Part shown: positions 34,671-54,216 of the stretch, piece by piece | Numbering within the stretch: the first letter of the stretch is position 1 | Layout: each line of letters starts with the position of its first letter | NCBI GenBank assembly: GCA_029547185.1 | Contig: JAKPPU010000005.1 | Location: forward strand, 1 to 64,000 | DNA: 64,000 nt | Direction of reading: 5' to 3' | From: Deltaproteobacteria bacterium | GTDB lineage: Bacteria > Desulfobacterota > Desulfomonilia > UBA1062 | The notes under the pieces: generated by a model | The model's input: only the letters and a program-made list of their open reading frames with translations | What the model was told of the DNA's origin: nothing | Databases searched by the model: none | Program-made: the position numbers and the translations under genes

Positions 34671-34749
34671 GAGGGGAGGCAGGGGCAGCCCTTCCTCCAC
34701 AAAGATCTTGAAGTCACGCTCGGAGAGGGGAGGCAGGGGTGGCCCTTCC
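34671..34749. repeat. Direct repeat of the element-1 outer arm
   Basis: The segment gaggggaggcagggg-NN-gcccttcc occurs at 34671-34695 and again at 34725-34749, 54 nt apart, differing by two adjacent bases. The second copy forms the outer arm of the structured element at 34728-34923. The first copy has no second pairing partner nearby. This suggests a partial duplication of one end of the element. Confidence 0.6.
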
Positions 34750-34923
34750 TTCACCGGGGACCGCCTTTTGATGCAGCCGAGACCTGCGTCTTAAGGCCGG
34801 ACCCGTAAACTCGCTCAGCTTCGCTTCGCTCAGACAGTACGGGTCCAGGAGGCCTCCGCCTTAAGGTCGGGCTGCATTAGCAAAAGGCGATCAACGGTTC
34901 ATCCAGGGCCACCCCTGCCTCCC
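34728..34923 (-). ncRNA. Structured intergenic element, copy 1
   Basis: The element is 196 nt, oriented on minus. Its outer stem is a perfect 19-bp pairing (34728-34746 with 34905-34923). Inside, reading on minus, come GGATGAACCG, then CGCCTTTTG pairing with CAAAAGGCG, a CTA bulge, ATGCAGCC pairing with GGCTGCAT, an irregular CCTTAAGGC stem, and a terminal stem GGACCCGTA/TACGGGTCC. That terminal stem caps a loop containing CTGTCTGAGCGAAGCG. A GGTGAAGGAAGG motif precedes the closing arm. It lies about 110 nt downstream of the lipoprotein gene in its sense direction. The 397-bp gap 34636-35032 holds only this, a half inverted repeat and a duplicated arm. Confidence 0.6.
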
Positions 34924-34979
34924 TGGCACGCATCGGGAAGTGCAGAAATCGTCATCCCCGTTTTTTCTTGGGGGGAAAA

Positions 34980-34996
34980 TAAATCTGTCCCCTTTT
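34980..34996. repeat. Half copy of the ggggacag inverted-repeat family
   Basis: The arm taaatctgtcccctttt is identical to the right arm of the 36267-36329 repeat, but the matching left arm is absent. It lies 37 nt from the 3' end of the lipoprotein gene at 35033. A partial deletion or a single REP-like unit are both possible. Confidence 0.55.
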
Positions 34997-35032
34997 CTCA
35001 TCCTTTTCTCAGAAACGCGCCTCAACCTTGTA

Positions 35033-36130
35033 TCATGGGACATACTTTCCGCCCGTTATAACTCCAAAGTAATTGAAATCAGGCGGCATCTCATACGCAG
35101 TCCAGCTTATGACGCCACTGTCATCCTTCCAGTGTCCGAATTCGTTCTCGGAGTCATTGAAGCCGACCGCATAGACCGTGTTGTCGATTACGTATATATA
35201 TTGCGGGGACCCCTCGTCTTCCAGGTCCTTGATTTCCGTGTTTTTCCAATAGACAGCCCTGCCATCATGATCCGAATTATAGCTGTAGCCCGCCATGTAT
35301 ACGTCCGAGTCCGAGACGTATATAGCCCTTGCTTCCGAATGTTGATCGTCATCCAAATTTTCGATGTCAATCCATGTTCCGTTTTCATCCATATATCCCG
35401 GCCAATATATAGATGAGGGGTTTGAATACTCAAATCCCGGAATCAGGACGCCGTCGCTGGAGAGGGCGATCGTCATTCCCCCGTTAATCGAGGGCGAGGA
35501 ATCAACTGTCGTGGAATCAGTCCTTGTGCCGTTTTTCCAGTAGCACATAACTTCCTGGTCTGATGAATTAATTGTGTATCCTGAAATATAGATATCCGTA
35601 CCATCGGTGGTTATGCTCACAGCGCTGCCGCCGTTGTCAGCAAGGGTCGGCAGGGCATTCCATACGCCATTCAGCCAGTATCCGGGCACTTCCATTACCT
35701 CTGACTCAGAGCCTCCGACGACATACACGTCGGATCCTTTCACCAGTATGCCCTTGGCACGGGCATCCTCTGTTGCGACAAGAGATGGAAGGCTGGTCCA
35801 CACGTTGTTTTTCCAGTAACCCGCCACGGACACATCATTGTCGTCATTGCAGGATCCTGCAATGTAAATATCGGAACCCTCTATATCGACTGCGGTTGCC
35901 CTTGATCTTTTGCCGGGCACGAGTGGGTCAAGATAATTCAAGACGCCGTCTTTCCAGTAAACCGGGATAAAGACGTCTGAATCGTTGAGATAGAAACCGG
36001 TTATATACGCCCCTGGTGCGGGGGCCGCGGGGGTGCCATCGTTATCATGCCCATGATGGGAACAGCCAGACACAAACATGCTGACCGCCATGAGAATGAC
36101 CAGAACAAATCCATTTCTGCAGAGATTCAT
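35033..36130 (-). CDS. Repeat-containing lipoprotein of unknown function
   Basis: ATG 36130 has GAGGAGG upstream. The signal peptide ends in the lipobox FVSGC, so the 365-residue protein is lipid anchored. The mature part is built of about seven repeats of roughly 45 residues with the pattern (D/S)VY(I/V)AG(Y/S)...(A/P)xYWKNxxxxxL, for example IYIAGSCNDDNDVSVAGYW and VYVVGGSESEVMEVPGYW. This suggests a beta-propeller exposed at the cell surface or in the periplasm. Such proteins are common in Desulfobacterota without a known role. Base composition is visibly more AT-rich than its neighbours, hinting at transfer or relaxed selection. Confidence 0.75.
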   Translation of the reverse strand: MNLCRNGFVLVILMAVSMFVSGCSHHGHDNDGTPAAPAPGAYITGFYLNDSDVFIPVYWKDGVLNYLDPLVPGKRSRATAVDIEGSDIYIAGSCNDDNDVSVAGYWKNNVWTSLPSLVATEDARAKGILVKGSDVYVVGGSESEVMEVPGYWLNGVWNALPTLADNGGSAVSITTDGTDIYISGYTINSSDQEVMCYWKNGTRTDSTTVDSSPSINGGMTIALSSDGVLIPGFEYSNPSSIYWPGYMDENGTWIDIENLDDDQHSEARAIYVSDSDVYMAGYSYNSDHDGRAVYWKNTEIKDLEDEGSPQYIYVIDNTVYAVGFNDSENEFGHWKDDSGVISWTAYEMPPDFNYFGVITGGKYVP

Positions 36131-36266
36131 GCTCAATCCTCCTCGGTTGTCTGTTTCTATGCACATACATCGCCGAGATCCGGTGGGAACTTTAAAAAAA
36201 CTCATCAGACGGAAGCGCGCCTTTTTTTAAGGGAAAGGAAAAGGGTAGGAAAAACAGGAAAAAGTA

Positions 36267-36329
36267 GGAAAAGGGGACAGATTTAAATACCGGGATCAAA
36301 AGAGGGAAAATAAATCTGTCCCCTTTTCC
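36267..36329. repeat. Inverted repeat of the ggggacag/ctgtcccc family (perfect)
   Basis: Arms ggaaaaggggacagattta and taaatctgtccccttttcc form a perfect 19-bp inverted repeat around about 25 nt, upstream of the AT-rich lipoprotein gene. A small GCGGGC/GCCCGC hairpin lies at about 36349-36364. The 322-bp gap 36131-36452 holds nothing else recognisable. Short perfect dispersed hairpins like this resemble REP elements mobilised by RAYT transposases; no such gene is in the window. Confidence 0.75.
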
Positions 36330-36452
36330 ATCATTCAATCCAGACGGACGCGGGCTGTCGCCCGCGCGGCTGAAGACCGCCTTCGGTGTCTCTGGAAACT
36401 ATTGCTTGGGAGACATATGCTATTGTAATGTATCCATGTTGGGAGAAAACGT

Positions 36453-36728
36453 ATGCTCAATAAAGAAACTGCAAAAAGGGTGATTGATTCTCTGCCAGAT
36501 GATGTCTCGATGGACGGGATCATTCATGCCCTCTATGTGAATTTACAGTTTTCGCGTGGCGAAAAAGAGATTCGAGAGGGTAGATGTATCGAAGAGAAGG
36601 GAAAGAAGTCCGGATCACAGGGGTTATTCACGGGGCCCGTGATTGGAAGCCTGAGTAATCAGGTGCATCCAGGCGGACGCGGCGGAGCGACGTCGCTGAT
36701 GCATATGCAGAGCTTGAAACCGTTGTAA
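36453..36728 (+). pseudogene. Antitoxin N-terminus joined to a toxin tail: collapsed toxin-antitoxin locus
   Basis: The ORF encodes 91 residues after GGGAGA. Its first ~45 residues (MLNKETAKRVIDSLPDDVSM, then DGIIHALYVNLQFSRGEKEI) match the short antitoxin-like proteins that precede RelE/ParE toxin genes. After about residue 45 the sequence becomes low-complexity and unlike the family. In another frame, 36584-36658 encodes REGKEVRITGVIHGARDWKPE, the typical C-terminal strand and HGARD motif of RelE/ParE toxins. A deletion thus appears to have removed the antitoxin tail and the toxin front. The toxin is surely inactive; a free antitoxin fragment might still be made. Confidence 0.6.
36584..36658 (+). 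pseudogene. RelE/ParE-type toxin C-terminal remnant
   Basis: Read from 36584, this frame gives MYRREGKEVRITGVIHGARD then WKPE and a stop. The xVRIxxVIHGARDW pattern is the last beta strand and conserved Arg of ParE/RelE-superfamily toxins. About 70 residues of an intact toxin are missing. It overlaps the antitoxin-derived ORF in a different frame. Confidence 0.5.
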
Positions 36729-36738
36729 GGAATATCTC

Positions 36739-37497
36739 ATGGACAAAACGATTCAGCAGAAGATAATCGATTTCCTGGATCCGATCTCGGAAGGCCTCTT
36801 TGTGGCCGATGTACGCATCGGCCTTGGGTATACGAGCGTGCGGCTCGATAATGGAAGCCTGGGGCTCGCGTGGACAGGGCAGGCGCATTCCGGGAGTTGC
36901 ACGTACGAACAGGAGGCGGGGACGCTTGCCGGAAGGCCGGCCCGCAAGCTTCTCGACATGCTTGCAAGACCGGACAATCCGCTTTCCAGAACCATCGGCC
37001 TCGCAACAGCCAATGCGCTTGCCGCCGGGATGGCGCGGCCGGAAGCCGGCTCGGCCGATGTTCTGGAACTTATTGATATTCAGGCCTCGGATCACGTGGT
37101 CATGGTGGGGTTCTTCAGACCTCTCGTGCCGCGGATTCACCGAACCGGCTGCCGCCTGGATATTCTGGAGCTGAAAAGCGAAACGCCCGACACCATGTCG
37201 CCGGAGGAGGGGCGGGCGTCTCTTGCCGCCTGCAGCGTTGCGATCATAACCGGGACATCGATCATCACCGGCACTCTGGACGGGCTGCTGTCCGGCCTTC
37301 GAGATCCCCGAGCCGTCGTAATTCTGGGGCCGTCCACCTTCATGCGTCCGGAGGTTTTCTCGGAAACGCCGGTCACCCACCTCGCCGGGGCCCGGGTCCG
37401 TGACGCTGCAGCCGTGGAGAAGATCGTCTCCGAGGGAGGCGGGACCATGATACTGAAGCACCACATGGACTTCGAAACCATATGCCTCAAGCGGTGA
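36739..37497 (+). CDS. DUF364-type Rossmann-like protein
   Basis: The 252-residue protein has the two-part DUF4213/DUF364 layout. An N-terminal domain (about 1-105) contains VADVRIGLGYTSVRLD and ATANALAAG. A Rossmann-like C-terminal domain has VVMVGFFRPLVPRIHRTGC, SVAIITGTSIITGTLDGLL and VVILGPSTFMRPEVF. The family is thought to take part in heavy-metal chelation or cofactor handling; function is not demonstrated. It starts 10 nt after the broken toxin-antitoxin ORF, and structured element copy 2 follows 47 nt downstream in the sense direction. Confidence 0.82.
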   Translation: MDKTIQQKIIDFLDPISEGLFVADVRIGLGYTSVRLDNGSLGLAWTGQAHSGSCTYEQEAGTLAGRPARKLLDMLARPDNPLSRTIGLATANALAAGMARPEAGSADVLELIDIQASDHVVMVGFFRPLVPRIHRTGCRLDILELKSETPDTMSPEEGRASLAACSVAIITGTSIITGTLDGLLSGLRDPRAVVILGPSTFMRPEVFSETPVTHLAGARVRDAAAVEKIVSEGGGTMILKHHMDFETICLKR

Positions 37498-37544
37498 AGA
37501 TACGAACAGGCTGTCTCTTCACTATGGCGGAGATACCCGGTACC

Positions 37545-37749
37545 GGAGTTGGATGGTCGGGGGATCTGGAGTGGACATTACAGCTCTTTTTGCGAAAGCA
37601 GCCATGAGAAGCCTGGAGGGCGCTTAAGCCCCGTACTGTCTGAGCACAGCGGAGCGGAGCGAGTTTACGGGGCTGCCCTTAAAGAGCAAGCCTTGGCTGC
37701 TTCAAAAAGGGCTGTCTGGCCACGGAAGATTCCCCGGCCATCCAACTCC
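37545..37749 (+). ncRNA. Structured intergenic element, copy 2
   Basis: The element is 205 nt. The outer stem pairs 37545-37564 with 37730-37749 over 20 positions, two of them G-U-compatible. Next come CTGGAGTGGAC (counterpart of CTGGATGAACC), CAGCTCTTTTTG pairing with CAAAAAGGGCTG (one G-U), a CGA bulge, AAGCAGCC pairing with GGCTGCTT, and a terminal stem GCCCCGTA/TACGGGGC capping CTGTCTGAGC...GGAGCGAGTT. The loop is shared with copy 1. It occupies most of the gap between the DUF364 gene and the convergent membrane-anchored coiled-coil gene. Confidence 0.6.
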
Positions 37750-37781
37750 CGCCCGGAGCAAGAAATTCCAGGCGGAACAGT

Positions 37782-38285
37782 CTATTCTTCCTTCTTCTGC
37801 TCGGATTCGATGAGCTTCGGCTCCTCGCCGTTTATCGGCAGTGCCTGCTGGGTGACGAAGACCCTCCGGAAGAATGCGGTGATTCCGGTCTCCGATTTCT
37901 GCACCTCTTCTTCGGCCTCTTTGAGCACGATCTCCCAGGTGGGTGCGAATCCGGGCGCCCGTGCGAGCATGGAGTGGACGGCCCTGTCATAGATGTGGAG
38001 CTGGCGGATCTCGGAGCGGCCCGGCTTGTTCTGCAGGGACCTGACTGTTATCCTCAGGTTCTCGTTCTGCTTCCTCAAGGCCTCGACCTCGTTCTCCCTG
38101 GTCATGTGGCCCTTCGTCTCTATCTGCATCCTCGTGTAGAGACTCTCCTTGAGACTCGCGATCTCCTTGCGGAGGCTTCTCATGCGGATCATGCCCTTTA
38201 TCCATACGACGATGCTCACGATGAGACCGATGAGCAGCCCGGACAGAAACGGGTGAAGGGTGAGAAAATCGAAGATCTCTCTCAT
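37782..38285 (-). CDS. Membrane-anchored coiled-coil protein of unknown function
   Basis: ATG 38285 (MREIFDFLTL) gives 167 residues; the in-frame upstream extension is not membrane-protein-like. One N-terminal transmembrane helix (about 11-30, PFLSGLLIGLIVSIVVWIKG) is followed by a coiled coil (about 32-80, RSLRKEIASLKESLYTRMQI and later heptads). A small C-terminal region contains FAPTWEIVLKEAEEEVQKS and FFRRVFVTQQ. The bulk would face the cytoplasm. I do not recognise the family. It is divergent from mazG with a 188-bp gap. Confidence 0.7.
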   Translation of the reverse strand: MREIFDFLTLHPFLSGLLIGLIVSIVVWIKGMIRMRSLRKEIASLKESLYTRMQIETKGHMTRENEVEALRKQNENLRITVRSLQNKPGRSEIRQLHIYDRAVHSMLARAPGFAPTWEIVLKEAEEEVQKSETGITAFFRRVFVTQQALPINGEEPKLIESEQKKEE

Positions 38286-38473
38286 ACGGGTAACCCTGCC
38301 TTTTTTGTCTTGTATCCCCCGGGGCCGCCAAATGCATCTCCGAGGACAGTTCTTTCTTATATATCCCTTTGGAGGATATTTATACAAAGAAAATCGGACA
38401 TCTTTGCTGCTTGTTCCCGCAGCGGATTGTGGGATATGGTTCTTGCAAATCGTTTTGGAGGGAATATCTCTTC

Positions 38474-39277
38474 ATGAATAAAGACACAAAGAGGATGAAG
38501 GCGATGAAAGAATTCGACCGGCTGGTGGAGATCTTCGAGATCCTCAGAGCGCCGGGCGGCTGCCCGTGGGATGCGGAGCAGACCCACAAGAGCATAGCCC
38601 GCTGCTCGATCGAAGAAGCCTATGAGCTCGTGGATGCCATCGACAACGGAAACATCGGACACATGCGCGAAGAGCTCGGCGACCTGCTCCTCCAGGTCGT
38701 CTTCCACAGCACCATTGCCAAGGACCTGGGCGAGTTCACGATCGTCGATGTCATCAATGACCTTGCGGACAAGCTCATCTACCGGCACCCCCATGTCTTT
38801 GCGGATGCGGATCTAAAGGACGCGAAGGAGGTCATCAAAAACTGGGACCGCCTGAAGAAGAAGGAAGAGGGCAAGCAGGAGCGGAAGTCGATCCTCGACG
38901 GCATTCCCGAGGCGCTGCCGGCCCTTCTCTACGCACGCAAGATCCAGTCTGCGGTGTCGCGGGTTGGCTTCGACTGGGACAACCCTCAGGCGGTGATCGG
39001 CAAGATCAGGGAAGAGGCGGACGAGCTCCTCGAGGCAGTGAAGAGCGGGGATGGAGAAGAGATCGAGAGCGAGATCGGAGACCTCCTCTTCAGCATCGTG
39101 AACCTGGCACGGCATGCAGGCGCCGATCCGGAAACAGCCCTCAGAAAGACGAACAGGAAGTTCAAGGAGCGCTTCTCGAAGATCGAGGACGAGGCAAAAA
39201 AGAGGGGCATCCCCCTCGAAGATATGAGCCTCGCGGAAATGGATGAGATCTGGGAGTCGGCGAAAAGAAAGGCATGA
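38474..39277 (+). CDS. mazG: Nucleoside triphosphate pyrophosphohydrolase MazG
   Basis: From ATG 38474 the product is 267 residues, the usual two-domain MazG length. Domain 1 shows LRAPGGCPWDAEQTHKSI, EEAYELVDAI and REELGDLLLQVVFHS (the EExxE...ExxD metal site). Domain 2 shows VSRVGFDWDNPQAVIGKI, EEADELLEAV and EIGDLLFSIVNLAR. MazG converts NTPs and dNTPs to monophosphates plus PPi, cleansing the pool and tempering the stringent response. GGAGG lies 12 nt before 38474; nearby in-frame ATGs at 38495 and 38504 have closer AGG sites, so the start is uncertain by about 10 residues. Confidence 0.94.
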   Translation: MNKDTKRMKAMKEFDRLVEIFEILRAPGGCPWDAEQTHKSIARCSIEEAYELVDAIDNGNIGHMREELGDLLLQVVFHSTIAKDLGEFTIVDVINDLADKLIYRHPHVFADADLKDAKEVIKNWDRLKKKEEGKQERKSILDGIPEALPALLYARKIQSAVSRVGFDWDNPQAVIGKIREEADELLEAVKSGDGEEIESEIGDLLFSIVNLARHAGADPETALRKTNRKFKERFSKIEDEAKKRGIPLEDMSLAEMDEIWESAKRKA

Positions 39278-39563
39278 TGGGCAGACTTCAGGATGCATCG
39301 ATGGCTCCGGCTGTTTTTCCGTCCGGGATCGCGATCGGAGGATACCCGTTTTCGGACTCGCAGCCGGGATCGTTTTTTTGGGCTGCGGAAGTGCCGGAGC
39401 TGTCCGATCTCGAGGGACCCGGCCGGCCTGAGGGCCCCGGTCGGGATTCAGAGGTTTCCCTGGCTCATCCCTTACGCCACCCTCTTATCATGTTTTCACA
39501 ATCCTTGTGTCCCTTCCTCCATCTCTTGACTCATAGCTTGAAATCATTATTACTTTGCTGAAC

Positions 39564-40946
39564 ATGCTGGATGCTTTCCTTCATATCATAAGCCTTCTCG
39601 GCCACTGGGGCTATCTGCTCATATTCCTGGGGCCCTTCCTCGAAAGCTCCGCCTTTCTCGGCCTGATCGTTCCAGGCGAGATCGTCATGGTCCTGGCAGG
39701 GTTTCTTGTGTCCCATGGATATCTCGATCTTATCGACTGCATCGTGGTGATTTCCCTGGGCGCGATCCTGGGCGACAGCACCGGGTATGCCATCGGGAAG
39801 ATGGTGGGGAAGGGCTATTTCGAGCGGCACGAGAGGTTCCTTCTTTTCAAGCGCAGGCACGTGCGCAGAGTCGAAGCGTATTTCGCCAGGCACGGAGGCA
39901 TGACCGTGTTCTGGGGCAGGTTTGTCCGCCTGCTCCGGGTTCTCGTGCCTTTTACCGCCGGCATGTCCGGTATGCGCTTCCGGAGTTTTGTTCTCTATAA
40001 CATTGCGGGCGGCGCACTCTGGGCGGTAACCTTTACCCTGCTCGGGTACTACTTCGGCCGGAGCTGGCAGCTTACCCAGAAATGGACGGGCAGGGCAGGG
40101 GTCTTCATCCTGTTCATGGTCCTCGTGATTGCCGTTTTCGGTTATCTGTACCGGAAGCTCGTCGAGTGCCGGGAAGAGATCTTCCGATGGTTCATGGGCA
40201 TGCGATCTTCTCCTGCAGTGAGAAGGTTCGAGCAGGAGCACCCGGGATTCATCACCTTCATCAGACGCAGGCTCTCCCCGAGCTCATACCTGGGACTGCA
40301 CCTTACTGTCGGGCTGATCCTGAGCGCCCTGTTCGTCTGGATATTCGGCGGCATCACCGAGGACATCCTCACCAATGATCCGCTGGTGGCCGTAGATAAC
40401 TGGGTTGTGGGCCACGTCCTCTTCTTCAGGTCCCCCCTTGCCGATCTCGTCATGAGAGGGATAACCCGGCTCGGCGGGACGATATTCATCGCGCTCGGCA
40501 CCGTTGCCATGGTGGCATGCCTGATCTTCAGAAGGCAGCTCGACGAGGCAGCAGGCTTTGTGGTGGCGGTCATGGGCGGGAGTATGCTCGGTACGATACT
40601 GAAATACATCATCCACCGGCCGAGGCCCATCAGCGAGACGACCCTCACGGCTGTCAGCGGATGGAGCTTCCCGAGCGGCCATGCCATGATGTCGATGATC
40701 TTCTACGGCATGGTCGCCTACGTGCTGGTGCGTGCGTTCGATTCCTGGAGGCTGAGGGCCTTTTTCATTACCATGGCGGGTTTCATGGTTTTCGTGATCG
40801 GGATGAGCAGGATATACCTGCAGGTACACTACCTGAGCGATGTGCTTGCAGGCTTTACCGGCGGTCTCTTCTGGCTGACCGTCTGCATTACGGGCCTCGA
40901 GGTCTATAAGGACAAGAAGAAGGCCTTGAGCCCGGACCACACGTAA
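39564..40946 (+). CDS. DedA (SNARE-associated/VTT) - PAP2 phosphatase fusion membrane protein
   Basis: The 460-residue protein joins two membrane modules. The DedA part (about 1-200) has FLGPFLESSAFLGLIVPGE, GAILGDSTGYAIGK and the signature FWGRFVRLLRVLVPFTAGM. The PAP2 part (about 235-450) has KYIIHRPRP, SFPSGHAMMS and SRIYLQVHYLSDVLAG, the full lipid-phosphatase triad. DedA proteins act in lipid-carrier flipping and PAP2 enzymes dephosphorylate lipids such as undecaprenyl pyrophosphate, so a fused flippase/phosphatase for recycling lipid carriers is a reasonable inference. ATG 39564 is used; TTG 39555 is an in-frame alternative. Confidence 0.92.
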   Translation: MLDAFLHIISLLGHWGYLLIFLGPFLESSAFLGLIVPGEIVMVLAGFLVSHGYLDLIDCIVVISLGAILGDSTGYAIGKMVGKGYFERHERFLLFKRRHVRRVEAYFARHGGMTVFWGRFVRLLRVLVPFTAGMSGMRFRSFVLYNIAGGALWAVTFTLLGYYFGRSWQLTQKWTGRAGVFILFMVLVIAVFGYLYRKLVECREEIFRWFMGMRSSPAVRRFEQEHPGFITFIRRRLSPSSYLGLHLTVGLILSALFVWIFGGITEDILTNDPLVAVDNWVVGHVLFFRSPLADLVMRGITRLGGTIFIALGTVAMVACLIFRRQLDEAAGFVVAVMGGSMLGTILKYIIHRPRPISETTLTAVSGWSFPSGHAMMSMIFYGMVAYVLVRAFDSWRLRAFFITMAGFMVFVIGMSRIYLQVHYLSDVLAGFTGGLFWLTVCITGLEVYKDKKKALSPDHT

Positions 40947-43060: not shown

Positions 43061-43269
43061 AGGGATCCTCCCGTATCGAATGATAAGGCGGGCAGTGCCG
43101 CCGTTTCCGACTATACTAGATAACGTACTGCCCGGCAAATCAAATGCTGGACTTTTTTCATATTCCTGCCGTGATTGCCTTCTTCATTCACCTGTTCATG
43201 AGAAGGTGAGATTGAGATATGTCTTCCACGGTCATATTCTTGAATCAAGGATGAGACAGGGAGAGGAAA

Positions 43270-45722: not shown

Positions 45723-48700
45723 ATGAAGAAGCTTACTTCGGCGGCATATCTTGTCCTCCTCCTCATCGCCGGGATCCCCGTTTTCGCCGATGACACTGAT
45801 ATCTTCCCGGCAGCTTCCAGCAGTGTACCACCAAACGTTCTCATCATCTTCGATAATTCGGGAACCATGAATGATCCGGTCCAGCAGATAGAATATGATC
45901 CGGATTATCCTTATGGAGAGCACATAAATCATCCGGGTAAAGCATATACCAAGGACAGGGTCTACTATTATTACAAATCAACGTGCGGGGGCCACGAGTG
46001 CGACAATTTCGAAGCATTCCCGCCCGCCACCAAGGCCATAAAAAACCCGAAACCCGTGATGCTGGCAGATGCCGCTACGGAAACTACGACCATCCTGGAC
46101 CCGACCACCTGTAACGTGACAAACGGAGCCGTGAATTCATTGAGGCAGTCCGGATGGTGGATGGGATACATCACGGACGTTCCGAACGGTCCGTATACGT
46201 GCGACAACGCGACCAAGATATACCGTCTCTACTCCGGCAACTACCTCAACTTCCGCACCTGGCTCGATGAGGGACACGCCCCCACGACAGGGGCTACTCT
46301 ATCCAAGCTGGAAATCGCAAAGACGGTCTTAAGCGAGCTTTTGGCAGGAACAGATGATAACCTGGTCCGTTTCGGCCTCATGGTGTACCGGGGTGGAAAC
46401 CAGGCCGGACAGGGAGGCCAGATCCTCGCACCCGTAGGGTCCTCGGACAGCCAGATCATGAGCGCCCTGAACAATGCGACGGATCAGGTGTCGGACCTGG
46501 TGGGCCACACACCCCTTGCAGAATGCCTGGCAGAGGCAGGGCTCTACTTCGCGGGCAAGGATTCCTGGTCGAACAACAACGACAGCGTTCGCTACACCTC
46601 CCCGGTGCAGTGGAGGTGCCAGAAGAATTACGTCATCATCCTTACGGACGGTCTCTCCACTTCGGACGAGGGGGTCAACAACCGCCAGCAGGACATCATC
46701 CACAACAGAGACAAGAACGGGAATTCGATGCCCCAATATTTCGGCAAGGCCATCGGCAACTACGATCATGATACATTCTCGGACGGAACCTCCGTTGATC
46801 CAAGTACGAATGACCAGGGCGGAACCCACTGGCTCGACGATGTGGCAAAGTTCCTCTATGAGGAAGACCTCATCAAGGGCAGGACCGATTCCGCTTCAGA
46901 ATCTTTCGACGACGAGTACTTCCCCAAACAGTTCATTTCAACCTTTGCCATCGGCTTCGGCAGCGGGACCGACTTTTCCTTCCTCGGCCGGGTGACCGAC
47001 GATACCCATGGAAGAGGGAAGTACTACAGCACGACAAACGGCGCCGGCCTGTCGCTCGCCCTCCAGGATGCCGTGGGCACGATCATCGCCGCGAACTCAA
47101 GCTTCATCGCACCGGTCGTGCCGGTAAACAGGCTCAACAAGGTGTATTCCGGCAACAGCGTATACCTTTCCCTTTTCAAACCTGATGCAACCGAATCTTT
47201 CTGGAGAGGAAACATCAAGAAATTCGGCCTGAGCGACAGCGGAGAACTCCTTCAGAAGGACGGAACCCCGGCTGCCGATGCAGGCGGACAGATCGTGAGC
47301 ACTGCTTCGTCGGCATGGACTTACAGCTCAGGAGACGGTAGCGTCGTCGAAGAGGGAGGGGCCGGTGCCGTGGTTCTCAATCAGAGCACGCGCCACTTCT
47401 ATACCTATAACGGAACGGTCAGGGATCTGACGGATGGAGCGAATGCATTCAGCGCAGCGAATGCCGACGTGCTGGCCGCCGTGGGAGGGAGTGATATGGA
47501 GGCGGCCGATCTCGTCAATTGGCTCACGGCGAGAGGGGATTATGCCCTGAACGGTGCCTCAAAAAGAGTCTGGGTTTTGGGAGATTTCCTTCACTCGAAG
47601 CCGGCGACCATGTTCTACGAAAACAGTACTATTCTTTTTGCAGGCTCCAATGATGGGTTCCTGCATGTTTTCGCTGATGACGACGGAGGGTATCCGAACG
47701 ATTTGAGCAAACATACCCTGAGCGAATCCTGGTGCTTCGTGCCCCCGGAGCTCCTGCCGAGACTGCACGAACTCAGAGACAGCAGCACGCATCCTTATTT
47801 CATCGACGGCACGCCCGTGCTCTTCGATCTGGGATCGTACCGGTACCTGACCTTCGGGTTCAGGCGTGGCGGAGACAAGTACTACACCCTGCGGGTCGGC
47901 GGTCTGGATGGGAGTAACTATACAGCGCCTTATTATGCCTGGGATGTCGGGCCTGATAAATTGCAGGGATATGGGAATGAAACGCTCGGCCAGTCCTGGT
48001 GCAGGCCATGGGTGAGCACCATCAGGGACACTTCCGGGACGAACAAGAGGGTGCTCCTGTTTGCGGGAGGGTATGATGCCGCCAACCAGGACCTTGACAG
48101 TCCGGCTTCTTCAGATACCAAAGGCAGGGCGATATTCGCCGTCGATGCCGCCACCGGGGCTCTCCAGACCACCCTGAACTTTAACCACGGCAACTATCCC
48201 AGTATGACGAATTGCTTCGTGGAGCTTGTCGCTTTTGACAGAAATGGCGACGGATTGGACGATACCATCTATTCGGGTTCTCTGGGCGGCGACCTCTTCG
48301 GCTTTTCCGACCGTAACAAGAACGGAACCTGGTCGATGGTGAAGGTTTTTCAGGCCAGGTCGGGAGATACCGCAAATATGCTCCTGAAGTTTCTCTACGA
48401 ACCGGATGTCGCCCTGGAGACCTTTGGTGATTATATCTATATCGGAACCGGCGACCGGGAACACCCGTCAGAGACTGCGACGGTCAACAGGCTCTATGCG
48501 ATCAAGAATACCTGGGCTTCTTCCTGGACAACACTCACCGAAGCCGATCTGGTGGATGTGACTGAGTACAATTACACATCCCCCGTATTTGCAGGCCTCC
48601 AGAGCGGAAATGGATGGTTCATCAAGCTCAATGAGCAAGCAGGTGAAAAGGTGGTTTCCTCACCGCTCGTTTACAACGGGATCGTCTTCTTTACGACCTA

Positions 48701-49019
48701 TACGCCCGGAACCGGCAACAGCTCCGACAAGTGCTCTGTCGAGGGTTTGGGCGGAGGGAGACTCTATGCCCTGAACTACCTCACGGGAGAGGCCATACCG
48801 AATCTATTTAATAATGAGGATTCGTCGCAGCTTGGCAGGGAGGACCGCTACAGGGAGCTGGGTGTCGGCATCCCATCCCCGCCGACCCTTGTCATTACGG
48901 CTTCAGGCGGGGCAAAGCTGATTATCGGAACGGGTGGGGCCGGCGGTACCACAGGGGCTGAGACTATCGAGATTCCAAGCACCAGCAGTGCAAAGATATA
49001 CTACTGGAAGCAAGACTAA
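45723..49019 (+). CDS. PilY1/PilC-type pilus tip adhesin
   Basis: ATG 45723 follows AAGGAG. The signal peptide (MKKLTSAAYLVLLLIAGIPVFA) precedes a 1098-residue protein. The N-terminal part has a von Willebrand A-like domain (VLIIFDNSGTM near 37-47, a variant MIDAS, and YVIILTDGLSTSD near 300). The C-terminal half is a PilY1 beta-propeller: VLGDFLHSKPATMFY, FAGSNDGFLHVF, SYRYLTFGFRRGG and the calcium-loop-like DRNGDGLDD at 839-847 followed by SGSLGGDLFGF. PilY1 proteins sit at the type IV pilus tip and control extension, adhesion and surface sensing. It leads a cassette of minor-pilin genes, the reverse of the common order. Confidence 0.9.
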   Translation: MKKLTSAAYLVLLLIAGIPVFADDTDIFPAASSSVPPNVLIIFDNSGTMNDPVQQIEYDPDYPYGEHINHPGKAYTKDRVYYYYKSTCGGHECDNFEAFPPATKAIKNPKPVMLADAATETTTILDPTTCNVTNGAVNSLRQSGWWMGYITDVPNGPYTCDNATKIYRLYSGNYLNFRTWLDEGHAPTTGATLSKLEIAKTVLSELLAGTDDNLVRFGLMVYRGGNQAGQGGQILAPVGSSDSQIMSALNNATDQVSDLVGHTPLAECLAEAGLYFAGKDSWSNNNDSVRYTSPVQWRCQKNYVIILTDGLSTSDEGVNNRQQDIIHNRDKNGNSMPQYFGKAIGNYDHDTFSDGTSVDPSTNDQGGTHWLDDVAKFLYEEDLIKGRTDSASESFDDEYFPKQFISTFAIGFGSGTDFSFLGRVTDDTHGRGKYYSTTNGAGLSLALQDAVGTIIAANSSFIAPVVPVNRLNKVYSGNSVYLSLFKPDATESFWRGNIKKFGLSDSGELLQKDGTPAADAGGQIVSTASSAWTYSSGDGSVVEEGGAGAVVLNQSTRHFYTYNGTVRDLTDGANAFSAANADVLAAVGGSDMEAADLVNWLTARGDYALNGASKRVWVLGDFLHSKPATMFYENSTILFAGSNDGFLHVFADDDGGYPNDLSKHTLSESWCFVPPELLPRLHELRDSSTHPYFIDGTPVLFDLGSYRYLTFGFRRGGDKYYTLRVGGLDGSNYTAPYYAWDVGPDKLQGYGNETLGQSWCRPWVSTIRDTSGTNKRVLLFAGGYDAANQDLDSPASSDTKGRAIFAVDAATGALQTTLNFNHGNYPSMTNCFVELVAFDRNGDGLDDTIYSGSLGGDLFGFSDRNKNGTWSMVKVFQARSGDTANMLLKFLYEPDVALETFGDYIYIGTGDREHPSETATVNRLYAIKNTWASSWTTLTEADLVDVTEYNYTSPVFAGLQSGNGWFIKLNEQAGEKVVSSPLVYNGIVFFTTYTPGTGNSSDKCSVEGLGGGRLYALNYLTGEAIPNLFNNEDSSQLGREDRYRELGVGIPSPPTLVITASGGAKLIIGTGGAGGTTGAETIEIPSTSSAKIYYWKQD

Positions 49020-49037
49020 AGAGCTTAAGGGGAGCAT

Positions 49038-49496
49038 ATGAAGAAAAATATCTTCAGGATATTCATTACCTCGATGGTTTTCGTCACGATAGCCCTGCCT
49101 CTCCGACCGAATGTCTGCAGAGCAGAGAAGATATCCGATTATGACCTGATCATGAAGCTGGAATACTCCTGCTATCAGGGCATGATCACATCGGTGAGCT
49201 CTGCGGGAGATTATCTCGTGCTGTCATCGCAGAAGAGGATCTGTCTCGTCGATGTCTCCTATAAGGGAAGCGTCTTCTTCACGGCAATCCACAGTGGTGA
49301 CAATGACCTCGTTGATGCAGCCAGATTGAAGCCCGGTGACTGGGTGCTTGTATGGGGAGGAGGATTGAGGGGCGACGCTGTTGCGGCAAAAGATATCTTT
49401 CTCTTATCCGGTAGACTGTCTGACGGAGAACTCAAGGATTTTATCCAGAAGAGGTCTCTCAAGTCGTGGCATAAGGAAGTGTTCTTAATCAATTGA
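49038..49496 (+). CDS. Exported protein of unknown function in the pilus cassette
   Basis: The 152-residue protein has a signal peptide (IFRIFITSMVFVTIALPL, cut near CRAE). The mature part has alternating strands (YQGMITSVSSAGDYLVLSSQ, then LKPGDWVLVWGGGL), suggesting a small beta-barrel or OB-like domain, and a basic helical tail. It lies 18 nt after pilY1 and overlaps the upstream in-frame extension of the pilW-like gene, so it belongs to the operon. A periplasmic helper for PilY1 is a guess. Family not recognised. Confidence 0.75.
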   Translation: MKKNIFRIFITSMVFVTIALPLRPNVCRAEKISDYDLIMKLEYSCYQGMITSVSSAGDYLVLSSQKRICLVDVSYKGSVFFTAIHSGDNDLVDAARLKPGDWVLVWGGGLRGDAVAAKDIFLLSGRLSDGELKDFIQKRSLKSWHKEVFLIN

Positions 49497-49519
49497 AGAG
49501 AACTGAAGGAAGACCATAC

Positions 49520-50164
49520 ATGAAAAGCCAAGCTCTTTTGCTGGATTGCATCGCGGGAGACAGGAAGGGGCTCACCCTGATCGAGCTCATGGTCGCATTG
49601 CTTTTGACCATGGTCCTTATGGCAGCGGTATACACCACGTATCAGGTCCAGAGAACCACGAGCGATGTCCAGCACGAAGTTTCCTCTGTTCAGCAGGACC
49701 TAAGGGCCGTTCTCGACATCATGGCCTGGGATATCAGACAGGCTGGATGCGACCCGACCCTCCAGAGCACTGCAGGTCTCGTCATCACCCAGACGGGACC
49801 GACGAGCATATCGTTCAGCATGGACCTCAACGAGGACGGGGATACGGCAGATACGGACCCTGCCGAGCAGGTGAGCTATACCCTCGACGGGACGAAACTG
49901 CAGAGAAACAATATCGCGGCGAATGTCGTCACCACCCTTACGAGCAACGCGACAACACTCGGATTCACCTACTACGATGCCGACAACAACGTGATCATGC
50001 CTACGGGCACAGGCGGAACCTCTCTTACAACGGCAGAAGCGAATAGCGTACGGTTCGTCGATATACATATCCAGGTCCGGAGCGACAGGATCGATCCGGA
50101 CACCCATGACTATATCAGGCGCAGTATGACCAAGCGGATCAAAATGAGAAATCTGGGAATATGA
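49520..50164 (+). CDS. PilW-type minor pseudopilin
   Basis: ATG 49520 follows GAAGGAAGA. The 214-residue protein has a prepilin signal: a basic leader, then KG^LTLIELMVALLLTMVLMA, with the conserved Glu at mature position 5, cut by PilD. The N-terminal helix continues (VQHEVSSVQQDLRAVLDIMA, then WDIRQAGCDPT), a strong PilW hallmark. The C-terminal region is beta-rich. Minor pilins prime type IV pilus assembly and carry PilY1 to the tip. Confidence 0.9.
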   Translation: MKSQALLLDCIAGDRKGLTLIELMVALLLTMVLMAAVYTTYQVQRTTSDVQHEVSSVQQDLRAVLDIMAWDIRQAGCDPTLQSTAGLVITQTGPTSISFSMDLNEDGDTADTDPAEQVSYTLDGTKLQRNNIAANVVTTLTSNATTLGFTYYDADNNVIMPTGTGGTSLTTAEANSVRFVDIHIQVRSDRIDPDTHDYIRRSMTKRIKMRNLGI

Positions 50165-50189
50165 CAAAGACGAGAGCGGGGATGAGAAG

Positions 50190-50585
50190 ATGAGAAGGCT
50201 GACCCCAAACGATGGCGGATTTACCCTCCTGGAGCTGGTTGTTTCGATCCTCATATTTTCCCTGGGATTCCTGGGTGTAACGAAAATGCAGCAGTATGCG
50301 ATCATGGGAAACAGCTTCAGCATGCAGATGAGCAACACGATCAACATCATAGACAACCAAGAGGAATACTTGCGGGGGCTGAATATCGGGGACCCCGACC
50401 TCACGCTCGGCAACCATAACGGGGGATCCGTAACCCGTCAGGGAATCCAGTATGATCTGTCCTGGACGGTGAGCACTACAGGGCTCGGACCTGCGGTGAA
50501 CGCCCGCGATATTGATATTCAGGTGGCTTGGGTGGAAAAAACCGTGAACCATCGCGTTGCAATGAAAATGTTCCGGTCGAACTAG
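50190..50585 (+). CDS. PilV-type minor pseudopilin
   Basis: The 131-residue protein has the prepilin motif GG^FTLLELVVSILIFSLGFL, with the mature Glu5 present, and the PilV-like continuation GVTKMQQYAIMGNSFSMQMS. The C-terminal strand DIDIQVAWVEKTVNHRVAMK (the V.W.e pattern) is typical of PilV. It starts 25 nt after the pilW-like gene. A GATGAGAAG ribosome-like stretch precedes the ATG. Confidence 0.88.
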   Translation: MRRLTPNDGGFTLLELVVSILIFSLGFLGVTKMQQYAIMGNSFSMQMSNTINIIDNQEEYLRGLNIGDPDLTLGNHNGGSVTRQGIQYDLSWTVSTTGLGPAVNARDIDIQVAWVEKTVNHRVAMKMFRSN

Positions 50586-50598
50586 GGCGGGGGATCAT

Positions 50599-51039
50599 AT
50601 GGACATTCGTCGTGACAACAGCGGCATGGTGATGGTGATGGTTCTCCTGTTCATGCTGGCAGCGATTCTGATAGGCATCTTCATGATGAGATCGACGATC
50701 ATCGAGACGAAGATCGTAACGAACGAGAAGGAACACAATCAGGATTTCTACCTTGCCGAGAGTGCGGCAGAAATCATCCTCCCCCAATTCGATGACATCG
50801 TGAGCGCAGCCGCATGGGTCGTCGACAACCGCGTGAACATTTCCGGTAAAATGCCTGCAGGGAGCGCGCTGGCCGGAGCAAACGTGGGAATCACCCTGCG
50901 GCGTGTCGGGAACCCTCCCGTGGGATCGGGTGCCAGTGCTACGAAGACAACTGCATATTACTACAGGGTCGACGCCACTGTCGGAGATCAGAAGGTGGAA
51001 ATGGGGATCTGGAAGGCATTCCCTAAACCGGGAAGCTGA
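50599..51039 (+). CDS. PilX-type minor pseudopilin
   Basis: The 146-residue protein begins RDNSGMVMVMVLLFMLAAI, a PilX-like N-terminal helix lacking Glu5 after a Gly cleavage site, followed by FMMRSTIIETKIVTNEKEHN and DFYLAESAAEIILPQF. The AESAAE segment is a PilX hallmark. It follows the pilV-like gene by 13 nt and closes the cassette. No FimT/GspH-like or PilE major pilin gene accompanies it here. Confidence 0.82.
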   Translation: MDIRRDNSGMVMVMVLLFMLAAILIGIFMMRSTIIETKIVTNEKEHNQDFYLAESAAEIILPQFDDIVSAAAWVVDNRVNISGKMPAGSALAGANVGITLRRVGNPPVGSGASATKTTAYYYRVDATVGDQKVEMGIWKAFPKPGS

Positions 51040-51047
51040 CAGGATTG

Positions 51048-51770
51048 CTAGAGAGATATGATGCCGGTGATGGGCAGATGGTCGGAGGCGAGGATGGTCT
51101 CCGGGTTGGTGAAGGCATCTATCCCCTCGAGGAGCCCTTCCGGAGAGACGAGGATCCTGTCGAGAGAGAACATGGGGCAGAAGGAGGGAAAGCTCTTCGG
51201 ATGCCTGGTCTTGGCGAACAGGGCGTAGAGCGTGTCCAGAGACGAGTTTATCGGCGACCACTCATTGAAGTCGCCCATGAGCACGACGTTCCCGAGAGGC
51301 CTTGAGGTAAGCGCCCGGATGATCATGTCTGCCTGAAACTTCCGCTCCGATCTCTTCAGCCCGAAATGAGCCGTGAGCACCCTCAGATTCCTGTCTCCTA
51401 TCCGGATGACCGCGTCGATTGCACCCCGGGGCTCGTACGGGTGGGCGCTCAAGTCGATGGTCCTGATCCTCGTGAAGGGAAATCTGCTCAAGAGGACGTT
51501 CCCGAAGTGGAAAGGCCTCTTGAAGAAGGTCGGGCCGAGCGCTGTTTCCATCCCCGTGATGTTCGTAAAGAAGGTTTCGTCGAGGTGCCCGCCGTACTCC
51601 AGGGAAAAGGTGGCTTCCTGCAGGGCTATGATATCCGCCTCCAGCTCGCTTATCACCCGCATGGCCCTCATGGGCACCTGACGGTTGTCGATGCCGATCC
51701 ATCCGTGCACGTTGTACGTCGCGATACGGATTCTCCTCGATGGAGTTTCCCTCAGGCGTTGAGGCATCAT
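51048..51770 (-). CDS. Endonuclease/exonuclease/phosphatase-family protein
   Basis: The 240-residue protein has the DNase I-like fold: RIATYNVHGWIG, ADIIALQEATF (catalytic Glu), VLTAHFGLKRSE, VVLMGDFNEWSP (Asp/Asn) and LASDHLPITG (Asp-His). All catalytic residues are present. Substrates may be nucleic acid or phospholipid head groups. Its start overlaps the stop of the PLD-VTT gene by 4 nt, and such EEP proteins are often paired with membrane phospholipase D proteins, so a lipid role is plausible. Confidence 0.88.
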   Translation of the reverse strand: MMPQRLRETPSRRIRIATYNVHGWIGIDNRQVPMRAMRVISELEADIIALQEATFSLEYGGHLDETFFTNITGMETALGPTFFKRPFHFGNVLLSRFPFTRIRTIDLSAHPYEPRGAIDAVIRIGDRNLRVLTAHFGLKRSERKFQADMIIRALTSRPLGNVVLMGDFNEWSPINSSLDTLYALFAKTRHPKSFPSFCPMFSLDRILVSPEGLLEGIDAFTNPETILASDHLPITGIISL

Positions 51771-53911
51771 GGAGACTTCCCGCCGGCAGACTTTCGGGAT
51801 ATCCGCCTCGTTGTCTTCACGAGCCAGATGAGGATGGCTGCAGCGAGGACCACGCTGCCTGCCAGAACGGCGATATTGAGGATGGACGGCTCGAGAATGA
51901 AATTCTTGAGCGACTCCGTAAAGAGGGTGATGGCGAATATGCCCGGCAGCATGCCGATAATCGTGCCGATGAAAAAGTCGCGGAACCTGATATGAGAAGC
52001 GCCTGCCACGAGATTGATGATCGAATACGGAGCTATGGGAACGATTCTCAGGACGACGACGGTAAGGAGACCCTCCTGCGCGAGAGTTCTGCTGATCCTG
52101 TTGATCCGCTTCCCTGCTACCGCTCTCACGAACTTCCGGCCCAGGGCAAAGCCCAGCCAGAACATCATGGTCCCGCTCAGGAGAGCTCCTCCCATGGCCA
52201 GGGCAAAGGCTGAAAAGGGCTCAAAAATGAATGATGTGGCGACGATCAGGACCAGGATGGGAAAGGACACCAGACCTCCCAGCAGGTACAGGGCGAGGAT
52301 GATGACAGGTGCCAGCGGGTTGTCTTCCAGGCCCTTAAGCTCTTGCATGATCACGGAAACGTTGAGGTACTCCGAGAGCGGCGACCAGCGCCACAAAACA
52401 GCGAAGAGGGCCATGACGAGAACCAGCACGACGAATCCGATGAGCCGCTTTCCTCCCGAGCTCTGGTTTTCCTCTCCGACGAATCTCTCGACGAATTTCT
52501 CCGCGCGAATCGGGCGCTCCGGGTCCACCAGGTAGGGCTCTGCCAGGATATTGTCCGCAACCGGCGAAGGCCCGAGGGGAAGGAGAACCCTGTGTGCATT
52601 GTTCAATGCGTCGATTGCCTTGATCATGGAGCCTGTCTTCTCCAGCATCTCGCCGACATGTGCGGCCGTAGAGTCGAGATGCTCGGCCAGCAGCCTGTTT
52701 CGCAGGTCGATACATACCCTGCAGGCTTGCGGATGTCCGGTCGTCTCCATGCTGAGGTCGCATTCGGTATCGAATCCCATGGACCGGTTTGCCAGGTTCG
52801 AGGAGCCGATACGCAGGAAGGTATCGTCGACGATGAGGACCTTCGAGTGGACCTCGATCAGGCTGTCCTCGCGCCCCGGGATCTCGGGATAGTAGAACCC
52901 GAATCTCCCGTAGGTGTCCAGCTTCCTCACCCTCTCCACCAGGTGGGACCTGATGGCGTCCATGGTATACTCCTCGAGCCATCCATGGCTCTTCTTTCTC
53001 GTAATGATGACCACTTCCGGGCCGTCTTTTTCCTGGAGCCTCTTCGCTATGGCCCCGGCTATCTTCGAGGAGGTGAAAAACGGATTCTCTATGTAAATGA
53101 TCTTGCGTGCGGACAGAATCGCATCCATCCAGAGAGACTCCACCTCGCGGACCTCGGGCCTGCCGCGGTATGCAGGCTCTGTCCGTGAGACGGCCACATC
53201 TATCTCGCTGATGTCCGGATGGAACCGCTCCGGCCACGGGTCGGCCTTCACCCCGTCGGGCTTCGAGAGGTGTCTGCCGGTTGCGTTATGCCACCGCGAA
53301 CGGTAGAGATCGCCGAGGATGGAGGCGACCTCTCCGTCCACAAGGAGCTGGACATCGTGGAAGGGGGGATACTCTTTGCCCCAGGGGTCGATTCGGCGGG
53401 GATCGTACGGCTGATGCTCCCTCACGTCCCATCGTCTGTTCGTCAGATCGATCCCCCCGACAAAGGCAATGCGGTCGTCGATGACGACGATCTTCTGATG
53501 ATGAGCGGCGCCCAGCGGCAGAGAGTTGTCCTGGTAGAAATGAATCTTTTTGCTCGTCTTCCAGTCGAACACCCACACGGGAAACGGCTCCCGCTCCAGT
53601 GCGTAGAGCATGGCGTAATCCCAGAGCAGGATATGGATATCGAGGCCGGGATTCTTCGAGGAGATGTAATTGAGGAACTCTCCGAGGCGGCCGGGAACAT
53701 CGCGGTCGCCTCCGTCACGGACGAGTTCGGTGCGGCTGTCGATATCCCAGCCCGTGATGTAGATCGAGCGCCTCGCGTTCATGGCGGCATCCACGAATGC
53801 GGAGAAATACTCGGATGCATCGATGAGGAAGGAGACACGATGGGCCCTCCCCATCTTCCAGTAGTTTTTCCCCTTCATGAGTATGGAGTGATTGTTTTCC
53901 ATGGCATACAT
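51767..53911 (-). CDS. Phospholipase D-like protein fused to a VTT (DedA-type) membrane domain
   Basis: The 714-residue protein has two HKD motifs: HHQKIVVIDDRIAFVGG (His138, Lys140, Asp145) and HSKVLIVDDTFLRIGSSN (near 360). These form a complete PLD or cardiolipin-synthase-like active site. The C-terminal ~220 residues are membrane helices of the SNARE-associated/VTT type (GGLVSFPILVLIVATSFIFE, then VVLRIVPIAPYSIINLVAGA). A soluble transphosphatidylase tethered to a lipid scramblase-like domain suggests phospholipid remodelling. It leads an operon with the EEP gene. Start 53911 is used; ATGs at residues 4 and 12 are alternatives. Confidence 0.9.
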   Translation of the reverse strand: MYAMENNHSILMKGKNYWKMGRAHRVSFLIDASEYFSAFVDAAMNARRSIYITGWDIDSRTELVRDGGDRDVPGRLGEFLNYISSKNPGLDIHILLWDYAMLYALEREPFPVWVFDWKTSKKIHFYQDNSLPLGAAHHQKIVVIDDRIAFVGGIDLTNRRWDVREHQPYDPRRIDPWGKEYPPFHDVQLLVDGEVASILGDLYRSRWHNATGRHLSKPDGVKADPWPERFHPDISEIDVAVSRTEPAYRGRPEVREVESLWMDAILSARKIIYIENPFFTSSKIAGAIAKRLQEKDGPEVVIITRKKSHGWLEEYTMDAIRSHLVERVRKLDTYGRFGFYYPEIPGREDSLIEVHSKVLIVDDTFLRIGSSNLANRSMGFDTECDLSMETTGHPQACRVCIDLRNRLLAEHLDSTAAHVGEMLEKTGSMIKAIDALNNAHRVLLPLGPSPVADNILAEPYLVDPERPIRAEKFVERFVGEENQSSGGKRLIGFVVLVLVMALFAVLWRWSPLSEYLNVSVIMQELKGLEDNPLAPVIILALYLLGGLVSFPILVLIVATSFIFEPFSAFALAMGGALLSGTMMFWLGFALGRKFVRAVAGKRINRISRTLAQEGLLTVVVLRIVPIAPYSIINLVAGASHIRFRDFFIGTIIGMLPGIFAITLFTESLKNFILEPSILNIAVLAGSVVLAAAILIWLVKTTRRISRKSAGGKSP

Positions 53912-54037
53912 CTGGGGACCGGTTCCTCGGGCTTAAGCGCTGCTCCTTAAGAATATAGTGCAGCACGAAAGAGCCGGCTCAAGGACTCTTGCCCTTCGTT
54001 GGCTTTTGTTCTGGAATGAATTGTTAAGAGCATGCCG

Positions 54038-54216
54038 AGGGAGTCGGGGGAAGCCTGGATGAACCGTCAAGCGCCTTTTGCTAAAGCAGACCAGACGGAG
54101 TCGGAGGCCTCTTGATCCCGTGAATGAGCAGAGCGAATCACGGGATCGGCCGTAGACGGAGTCTGTGGATGCTTCAAAAGGCGGTTTAGGTGAAGGAAGG
54201 ATTCCCCCGACTCCCT
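54038..54216 (+). ncRNA. Structured intergenic element, copy 3
   Basis: The element is 179 nt. The outer stem is a perfect 15-bp pairing of agggagtcgggggaa (54038-54052) with 54202-54216; its closing arm touches the treZ stop codon. Inside come CCTGGATGAACCG, identical to copy 1, CGCCTTTTG with CAAAAGGCG, a CTA bulge, AAGCAG with the GATGCTT side, GGAGGCCTC, and a terminal 10-bp hairpin GATCCCGTGA/TCACGGGATC over a shorter loop containing TGAGCAGAGCGAA. GGTGAAGGAAGG precedes the closing arm. It fills the 303-bp gap 53912-54214 and is antisense to treZ. Confidence 0.6.

What the first reader, a model, noticed from the sequence alone, without database searches (positions are those of the whole stretch)
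34728..54216. Three dispersed copies of an undescribed structured element with covarying outer stems
Elements at 34728-34923 (minus), 37545-37749 (plus) and 54038-54216 (plus) share the same order of parts. These are a G-rich outer arm, CTGGATGAACC (CTGGAGTGGAC in copy 2), CGCCTTTTG paired with CAAAAGGCG (extended and G-U containing in copy 2), a 3-nt CTA/CGA bulge, AAGCAG-type inner stem, a CCCGT...ACGGG terminal hairpin with TGAGC...AGCGA in the loop, and GGTGAAGGAAGG before the closing arm. The 15-20 bp outer stems are fully paired (only G-U exceptions) but differ in sequence between copies. That is covariation, not conserved terminal repeats as in a MITE. All copies are intergenic. This could be a structured RNA, a hairpin-mobilised element or a 3' regulatory module. 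I cannot match it to a named family.
Basis: partly seen in the sequence, partly recalled or inferred. Interest (0 to 1): 0.85.

Follow-up and report, generated by a model that had tools for sequence, protein, structure and literature searches.

The report
Mobile DNA hairpins behind stop codons
The three repeats belong to an unnamed family of about 39 copies of a long hairpin, apparently mobile, that nearly always lies just behind a gene's stop codon in one fixed direction and seems to be shaped as folded single-stranded DNA rather than as an RNA.

Summary
The three elements are real. They belong to a family of 39 copies in this genome, also found in six other species of the genus and one other genus of the family. 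Rfam has no match. The outer stems covary as a helix: 24 double compensatory events (19 without one shifted copy) against a tree-based null mean of 1.0, maximum 7 of 300. Only 2-3 single pairs are significant, none in the outer stem.

In 35 of 38 copies the 3'-side gene points at the element, stop codon a median 20 nt away. The folding strand is antisense to that gene: G.T mismatches outnumber A.C, it folds better in 35 of 36 copies, and its tips are mostly purine-N-A triloops, as in stable DNA mini-hairpins. Eight of nine orthologous sites in a sister species lack it.

Best reading: a non-autonomous ssDNA-hairpin mobile element, working like REP or attC but meeting neither definition (no GTAG, no attC boxes, no Y1 transposase found here). 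The enzyme is unknown; an RNA role is not excluded.

The parts
34718..34931 (-). Copy 1 with conserved ends: GCGTGCC (34925-34931), hairpin 34727-34923, 3' end CTCTCCGAGC (34718-34727)
34663..34717 (-). Fragment of a second copy (its 3' end and a remnant) abutting copy 1; blastn match 34648-34700; same arrangement at G000:C117
   Evidence: and reading
33211..34635 (+). Predicted gene whose stop codon faces the 3' side of copy 1
   Evidence: own codon-scored ORFs
37545..37749 (+). Copy 2, second subfamily (CTGGAGTGGAC / GGCCACGGAAG)
37782..38285 (-). Predicted gene whose stop codon faces the 3' side of copy 2
54030..54227 (+). Copy 3 with conserved ends: GCATGCC (54030-54036), hairpin 54037-54217, 3' end CCTCCGAAC (54219-54227); short tip TGAGC-AGA-GCGA
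54215..55924 (-). Predicted gene whose reading frame runs into copy 3; its stop codon (54215-54217) lies in the outer arm

Best explanation
A family of non-autonomous mobile elements, about 180-215 bp in this genus, that act as folded single-stranded DNA. One strand folds into a long imperfect hairpin with a conserved tip (TGAGC - short stem - GCGA, mostly capped by a purine-N-A triloop) and a conserved purine-rich internal loop (GGA opposite GGA). Inferred cycle: an enzyme supplied in trans recognises the hairpin when that strand is single-stranded, for example during replication, and places the element in one direction just behind stop codons. Shown: the repeat family, the fold, which strand is favoured, the gene-relative position in this genus, unshared insertion sites, one copy with homogenised arms and one with its core inverted relative to its ends. 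Inferred: ssDNA as working form, transposition as the way of spreading, the unknown enzyme. Agreement of the arms may be kept partly by selection and partly by template-switch correction.
For: 39 dispersed copies. Helix-level covariation: 24 double events (19 without the shifted copy L070) against null mean 1.03, maximum 7 of 300. Triloops at 29 of 36 own tips, 28 purine-N-A, 17 of 21 distinct hairpins, against 8 of 85 other intergenic inverted repeats in part of G003. 3'-side gene opposite in 35 of 38, p 7e-8; 8 of 9 in G003. 8 of 9 orthologous sites without a tip in G003; at the ninth the G003 element faces the other gene. Arm homogenisation (L015 = L174) and inverted core (L029 = L056).
Against: No mobilising enzyme and no autonomous copy found. 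No target-site duplication recognised by eye, and no within-species polymorphism could be tested. G.U wobbles and tandem G.A pairs suit RNA too. 76 single changes break outer pairs on the tree. The triloop control required perfect stems of 7 or more and is not matched for stem length; in G010 only 15 of 28 tips are GNA, its G.T excess is not significant (7 to 3) and it has no gene bias.
Confidence: 0.55

Rival explanations
1. A structured RNA of the reader's strand: an independent small RNA, perhaps itself copied into many sites (SINE-like).
For: Covarying helix, G.T rather than A.C mismatches, strand stability also with RNA parameters (33 of 36), tandem G.A motifs at the tip.
Against: No conserved promoter or terminator seen in the aligned flanks (T-rich stretch in 12 of 27 right flanks, not directly behind the stem). 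Triloops instead of GNRA/UNCG tetraloops. No Rfam match. No reverse transcriptase domain found in this genome.
Confidence: 0.2
2. A member of the REP/REPIN world moved by a RAYT (Y1) transposase.
For: Position within about 20 nt of ORF 3' ends and supply of stop codons are known for REPs (PMC3733652, section 15). Y1_Tnp genes occur in 7 of the 8 relatives searched in the family and in 4 of 5 further genomes reached through loci.
Against: No Y1_Tnp in this genome at E<=10 although it has the most copies in its genus. No element tip in 20 stretches holding RAYT genes of relatives. GTAG in 0 of 39 feet; GTGG in 13 of 39 gene-sense feet, about 6 nt from the stem rather than 0-2 (inspection). Much longer than the 20-40 bp REPs.
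Confidence: 0.13
3. A variant integron recombination site (attC-like) spread by an integron integrase.
For: Integron integrase at C210:27183-28109 (452.7 bits, cut-off 265) and in G001, G003, G004, G006 (G002 and G005 not searched). As in attC (recalled), the site follows an ORF and the strand antisense to the gene folds.
Against: 0 of 39 elements have an RYYYAAC / GTTRRRY pair. The integron stretch of G006 shows an ordinary-looking 57-bp attC. G010 has 32 model hits but no integrase above the cut-off. Neighbour genes look like ordinary chromosomal genes (judged by eye).
Confidence: 0.05
4. A 3'-UTR RNA module or terminator read in the sense of the adjacent gene.
For: Stop-codon adjacency and fixed direction in this genus; near absence between divergent genes (1 of 34 against 9 of 33 window gaps, p 0.006).
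Against: The gene-sense strand is the less stable one and carries the A.C side of the mismatches. No T-run directly behind the arm. Gene relation differs between lineages. Sites not shared with G003.
Confidence: 0.06

Closest known systems
REP / REPIN / BIME elements (GTAG and CGTC families; PMC3733652, abstract and sections 6 and 15 read)
   Same: Dispersed palindromes, mostly close to ORF 3' ends, between unidirectional or convergent genes, sometimes supplying a stop codon; proposed ssDNA mobility.
   Different: 180-215 bp instead of 20-40 bp, elaborate conserved internal loops and tip, near-fixed direction relative to the gene, no GTAG tag, no Y1 transposase found in this genome.
Integron attC sites
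   Same: Imperfect hairpin behind an ORF, sequence-variable but structure-conserved, folded strand antisense to the gene (attC features recalled).
   Different: No R-box pair in 39 of 39, longer, single dispersed copies, not in cassette arrays.
Bacterial MITEs such as ERIC/RU elements (recalled; PMC2759123 seen as listing and abstract start only)
   Same: Short non-autonomous intergenic repeats of 100-230 bp with palindromic character.
   Different: Outer arms vary between copies while staying paired; the two conserved ends are not clear inverted copies; no target duplication recognised.
STAXI and OTH-22-1 motifs from structured-RNA screens (PMC2864571, PMC8632094; passages read)
   Same: Comparative-genomics structures where ssDNA was weighed against RNA by loop type or by attC-like boxes.
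   Different: STAXI has UUCG tetraloops, which favour RNA; this element has purine-N-A triloops, which favour DNA, and no attC boxes.

Membership tests
REP/REPIN (RAYT-associated) | GTAG or GTGG tetranucleotide 0-2 nt 5' of the hairpin | tested here: not met
   GTAG in 0 of 39 feet; GTGG in 13 of 39 gene-sense and 1 of 39 reader-side feet, about 6 nt off the stem by inspection; rule from PMC6006769 passage
REP/REPIN (RAYT-associated) | Y1_Tnp (RAYT) gene in the genome, flanked by the repeat | tested here: not met
   none in this genome (96% complete draft); no element tip in 20 RAYT stretches of relatives
Integron attC | RYYYAAC ... GTTRRRY box pair | tested here: not met
   0 pairs in 39 elements with 60 nt flanks
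Integron attC | Integron integrase in the genome | tested here: met
   452.7 bits in this genome, over cut-off in 5 of 6 genomes searched
MITE | Conserved terminal inverted repeats and target-site duplication | tested here: inconclusive
   conserved ends differ (GCGTGCC / CCGAAC); no duplication seen by eye; no exact empty site available
Known structured RNA family | Match to an Rfam model | tested here: not met
   0 at gathering score in the window; 7 loci at E<=1, no match on the element
Retron or retro-element RNA | Reverse transcriptase in the genome | tested here: not met
   RVT_1 none in this genome, G001 and G006; present in G003, G004 and G010
Intrinsic terminator | T-run directly behind the hairpin | tested here: not met
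   not behind the gene-sense arm by inspection; T-rich within 25 nt of the other end in 12 of 27

The most novel reading that the evidence does not exclude
A new class of ssDNA-hairpin mobile element whose GNA-capped tip is a recombinase recognition module shared across phyla (Syntrophaceae-related bacteria, a Geobacter, Sporomusaceae, possibly Bacteroidota), and which in one lineage is inserted directionally behind stop codons by an undescribed enzyme.
Probability: 0.3. Interest if true: 0.8.

Novelty: new variant of a known kind. Interest (0 to 1): 0.55.

Why it matters
Known bacterial hairpin repeats of this behaviour are short REPs with a dedicated transposase, or integron sites. This family keeps an elaborate fold with DNA-type loops, is oriented to stop codons in 35 of 38 copies, and carries a tip motif also found in other phyla. 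If confirmed, it points to an unrecognised ssDNA-processing enzyme. It also shows how strand choice, G.T against A.C mismatches and loop type can help to separate DNA structures from RNA structures in genome screens.

Tried and rejected
RNA family: no Rfam match. RAYT: not found in G000 and not linked to the element in the relatives' RAYT loci. Retron origin: no RVT_1 in G000. Integron attC: integrase present but no attC boxes. Viral, phage or plasmid carriage: exact tip pattern 0 in viral contigs; element query no match in phages or plasmids; the Sporomusa query gave two partial plasmid hits, one over the tip. Autonomous parent: blastn hits were full or fragmentary copies, none read as halves around an ORF. 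Literature: seven searches, of which looked for this element or its kind (one search was on GNA hairpins); none of the listed titles names it.

Weak points kept in view: five of the 24 double events come from a one-base shift in L070. 76 single changes break outer pairs. In one search cells are related copies, so the tree count is safer; the G010 excess there is not significant. One search used 36 of 39 copies (L067, L171, L174 left out); one search used 31 of 39 (first subfamily; L067 and L174 dropped); one search used 36 of 39 own copies (no tip by regex in L049, L167, L171); 31 of 32 G010 hits were fetched. L060 and L067 share near-identical flanks, so 39 may include a duplicated or redundant locus. 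Genes were called by my own codon-scoring script, not by a standard gene finder. Site occupancy used the tip pattern only.
Full report
WHAT IS THERE. The three copies are at the stated places and each folds as one long hairpin far below shuffled controls. The assembly is an unnamed 4.19 Mb draft of 215 contigs, 96% complete. blastn with copy 1 gave 40 places, fragments and reverse re-hits included. A covariance model of 29 cores gave 39 distinct copies besides five reverse-strand re-hits; two of them, L060 and L067, share near-identical flanks. With the same model 8 of 60 genomes had matches: this one, G001 to G006 of the genus (G002 and G005 weakly), and G010 of another genus of the family with 32 hits; none outside the family.

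ANATOMY. GGA faces GGA and GA faces GA in the internal loop (inspection). The second subfamily has CTGGAGTGGAC / GGCCACGGAAG there. Conservation fades within about ten bases outside the stem, and no promoter or terminator is conserved in the aligned flanks (32 left and 27 right flanks of 39).

COVARIATION. On 31 copies of the main subfamily the 17 outer pairs show 24 double Watson-Crick-to-Watson-Crick events on a FastTree tree and 435 of 527 paired cells. Shifted registers show 1-4 events and 153-239 cells. 300 tree-preserving nulls give a mean of 1.03 events (maximum 7) and 251 cells (maximum 327). Five of the 24 events are a one-base register shift in L070 (window copy 3), leaving 19. The same tree has 76 single changes that break a pair. 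Single pairs rarely reach E<=0.05: two and three, all in the core. RNAalifold saw both-side changes in 21 of 33 predicted pairs. So the helix is supported, although most pairs are not proven one by one.

WHICH STRAND FOLDS, AND AS WHAT. As tree events in the own outer stem the count is 31 to 13, p 0.01. Tips are triloops in 29 of 36 own copies, 28 of them purine-N-A; of 21 distinct hairpins 17 have a triloop. In G003/G001/G004 10 of 12 are triloops (8 GNA), in G010 22 of 28 (15 GNA), in the Sporomusaceae group 60 of 62 (58 GNA), though on only 5 distinct hairpins. Among 85 other intergenic inverted repeats of G003 with stems of 7 or more, 8 have triloops, 2 of them GNA; that control is not matched for stem length. 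GNA loops with at least two G-C pairs are known as extraordinarily stable DNA mini-hairpins (PMC4686876, passages read). Loop type has been used the other way round, UUCG for RNA, in a published screen (PMC2864571, passages read). I therefore favour ssDNA, but G.U wobbles and tandem G.A pairs do not exclude RNA.

POSITION. With ORFs scored by codon usage, the gene on the 3' side lies on the opposite strand, pointing at the element, in 35 of 38 copies (p 7e-8). Its stop codon is a median 20 nt from the element edge, taken as 36 nt beyond the core (range -21 to 207). The 5'-side gene is unbiased (20 sense, 15 antisense). The exceptions are L041, L046 and L059. Only 1 of 34 copies with both neighbours called lies between divergent genes, against 9 of 33 window gaps of at least 60 nt (p 0.006). 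In G003 8 of 9 copies follow the rule, in all relatives 11 of 13. Convergent genes can each carry their own copy in mirror orientation (L049/L065 and L050/L172 here, two sites in G003). In G010 there is no bias (13 opposite, 16 same). In the Sporomusaceae group the left-hand gene is in sense in 39 of 48 and the right-hand gene opposite in 31 of 49. The rule therefore belongs to this genus and not to the hairpin as such, which argues against one conserved mRNA function.

MOBILITY. Nine 3'-side neighbour genes have an ortholog in the 1,195,596 bases of G003 that I fetched. Eight have no element tip within 500 nt downstream; for L059, where the element lies upstream of that gene, the stretch behind its other neighbour has none either. 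At the ninth, L062, G003 has an element of another subtype that faces the other gene. Fragments abut full copies (34663-34717 beside copy 1, the same arrangement at C117; a half copy ending at the tip beside L045). L015 (= L174) has both arms with CTGGATGAACC, as expected from template-switch correction within a palindrome, and L029 (= L056) has its core inverted relative to its ends. Such processes can also create compensatory changes, so covariation is not by itself proof of selection. No exact empty site and no within-species comparison were available.

SPREAD OF THE TIP. The exact tip pattern occurs in 73 stretches of the genome collection of 84,980 species: mostly Sporomusaceae and CTSoil Bacillota MAGs (Sporomusa, Pelosinus, Anaerospora among the named), plus the genus studied, a Geobacter, a Negativicutes and a Clostridiales MAG. 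It is absent from viral contigs. In a 395-genome sample of the phylum a slightly shorter pattern occurs in 6 genomes and the reversed control pattern in none. In Sporomusaceae the tip caps a different long stem. A Bacteroidota plasmid matches the Sporomusa query over its tip at 84% (not followed).

MECHANISM AND RIVALS. A ssDNA-hairpin mobile element fits best: repeat family, unshared sites, directionality, arm correction, DNA-type tips. It works like a REP or an attC site but is filed as neither: GTAG in 0 of 39 feet (GTGG in 13, about 6 nt off the stem), attC boxes in 0 of 39. The genome has no detected Y1 transposase, although 7 of 8 relatives searched in the family have one, and no reverse transcriptase match. 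The integron integrase of the genus goes with an ordinary-looking attC in G006. REPs too lie within about 20 bp of ORF 3' ends and can supply stop codons (PMC3733652, abstract and sections 6 and 15 read), so the location has precedent; in those parts I saw no report of a fixed direction relative to the gene. The enzyme remains unknown, which is the main gap.

NOT IN PRINT. Sequence-string searches of the held papers gave 8 papers, unrelated by title. Searches on hairpin, REP, MITE, Sporomusa and structured-RNA terms listed no title naming such an element. This covers only the open-licence library and mostly listings.

Noticed in passing
G000:C210:27183-28109 (L315, L320): Integron integrase gene near a contig end; the same in G001, G003, G004 and G006, with one 57-bp attC-like site visible in G006 (L323).
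   Followed up: partly
Distal flanks of L041, L043, L048, L055, L062, L065: A second short palindromic repeat (GTCATTCCC...GGGAAT type) lies within 75 nt of the gene-distal end in 6 of 39 copies.
   Followed up: no
L044, L045, L046 distal flanks: Related sequence (GACAAGTGCAAAACAGGTATCCTC and similar) continues beyond the distal end of these copies, as if a longer unit had sometimes moved or been duplicated.
   Followed up: no
G010 loci L178-L208: In the other genus the hairpin is embedded in a longer repeat bounded on both sides by TTTATATGAAAA-like sequence, sometimes in tandem.
   Followed up: partly
Sporomusaceae loci L093-L165: A separate family of repeats carrying the same tip on another stem, followed by a second hairpin TTACTTTTGG...CCAAAAGTAA in many copies.
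   Followed up: partly
NZ_AP025311.1 54655-54709 (Aureibacter tunicatorum plasmid): 84% match to the tip region of the Sporomusa element in a Bacteroidota plasmid.
   Followed up: no
L060 (C156:128922) and L067 (C106:137): Two copies with near-identical flanks; a duplicated locus or redundant assembly.
   Followed up: no
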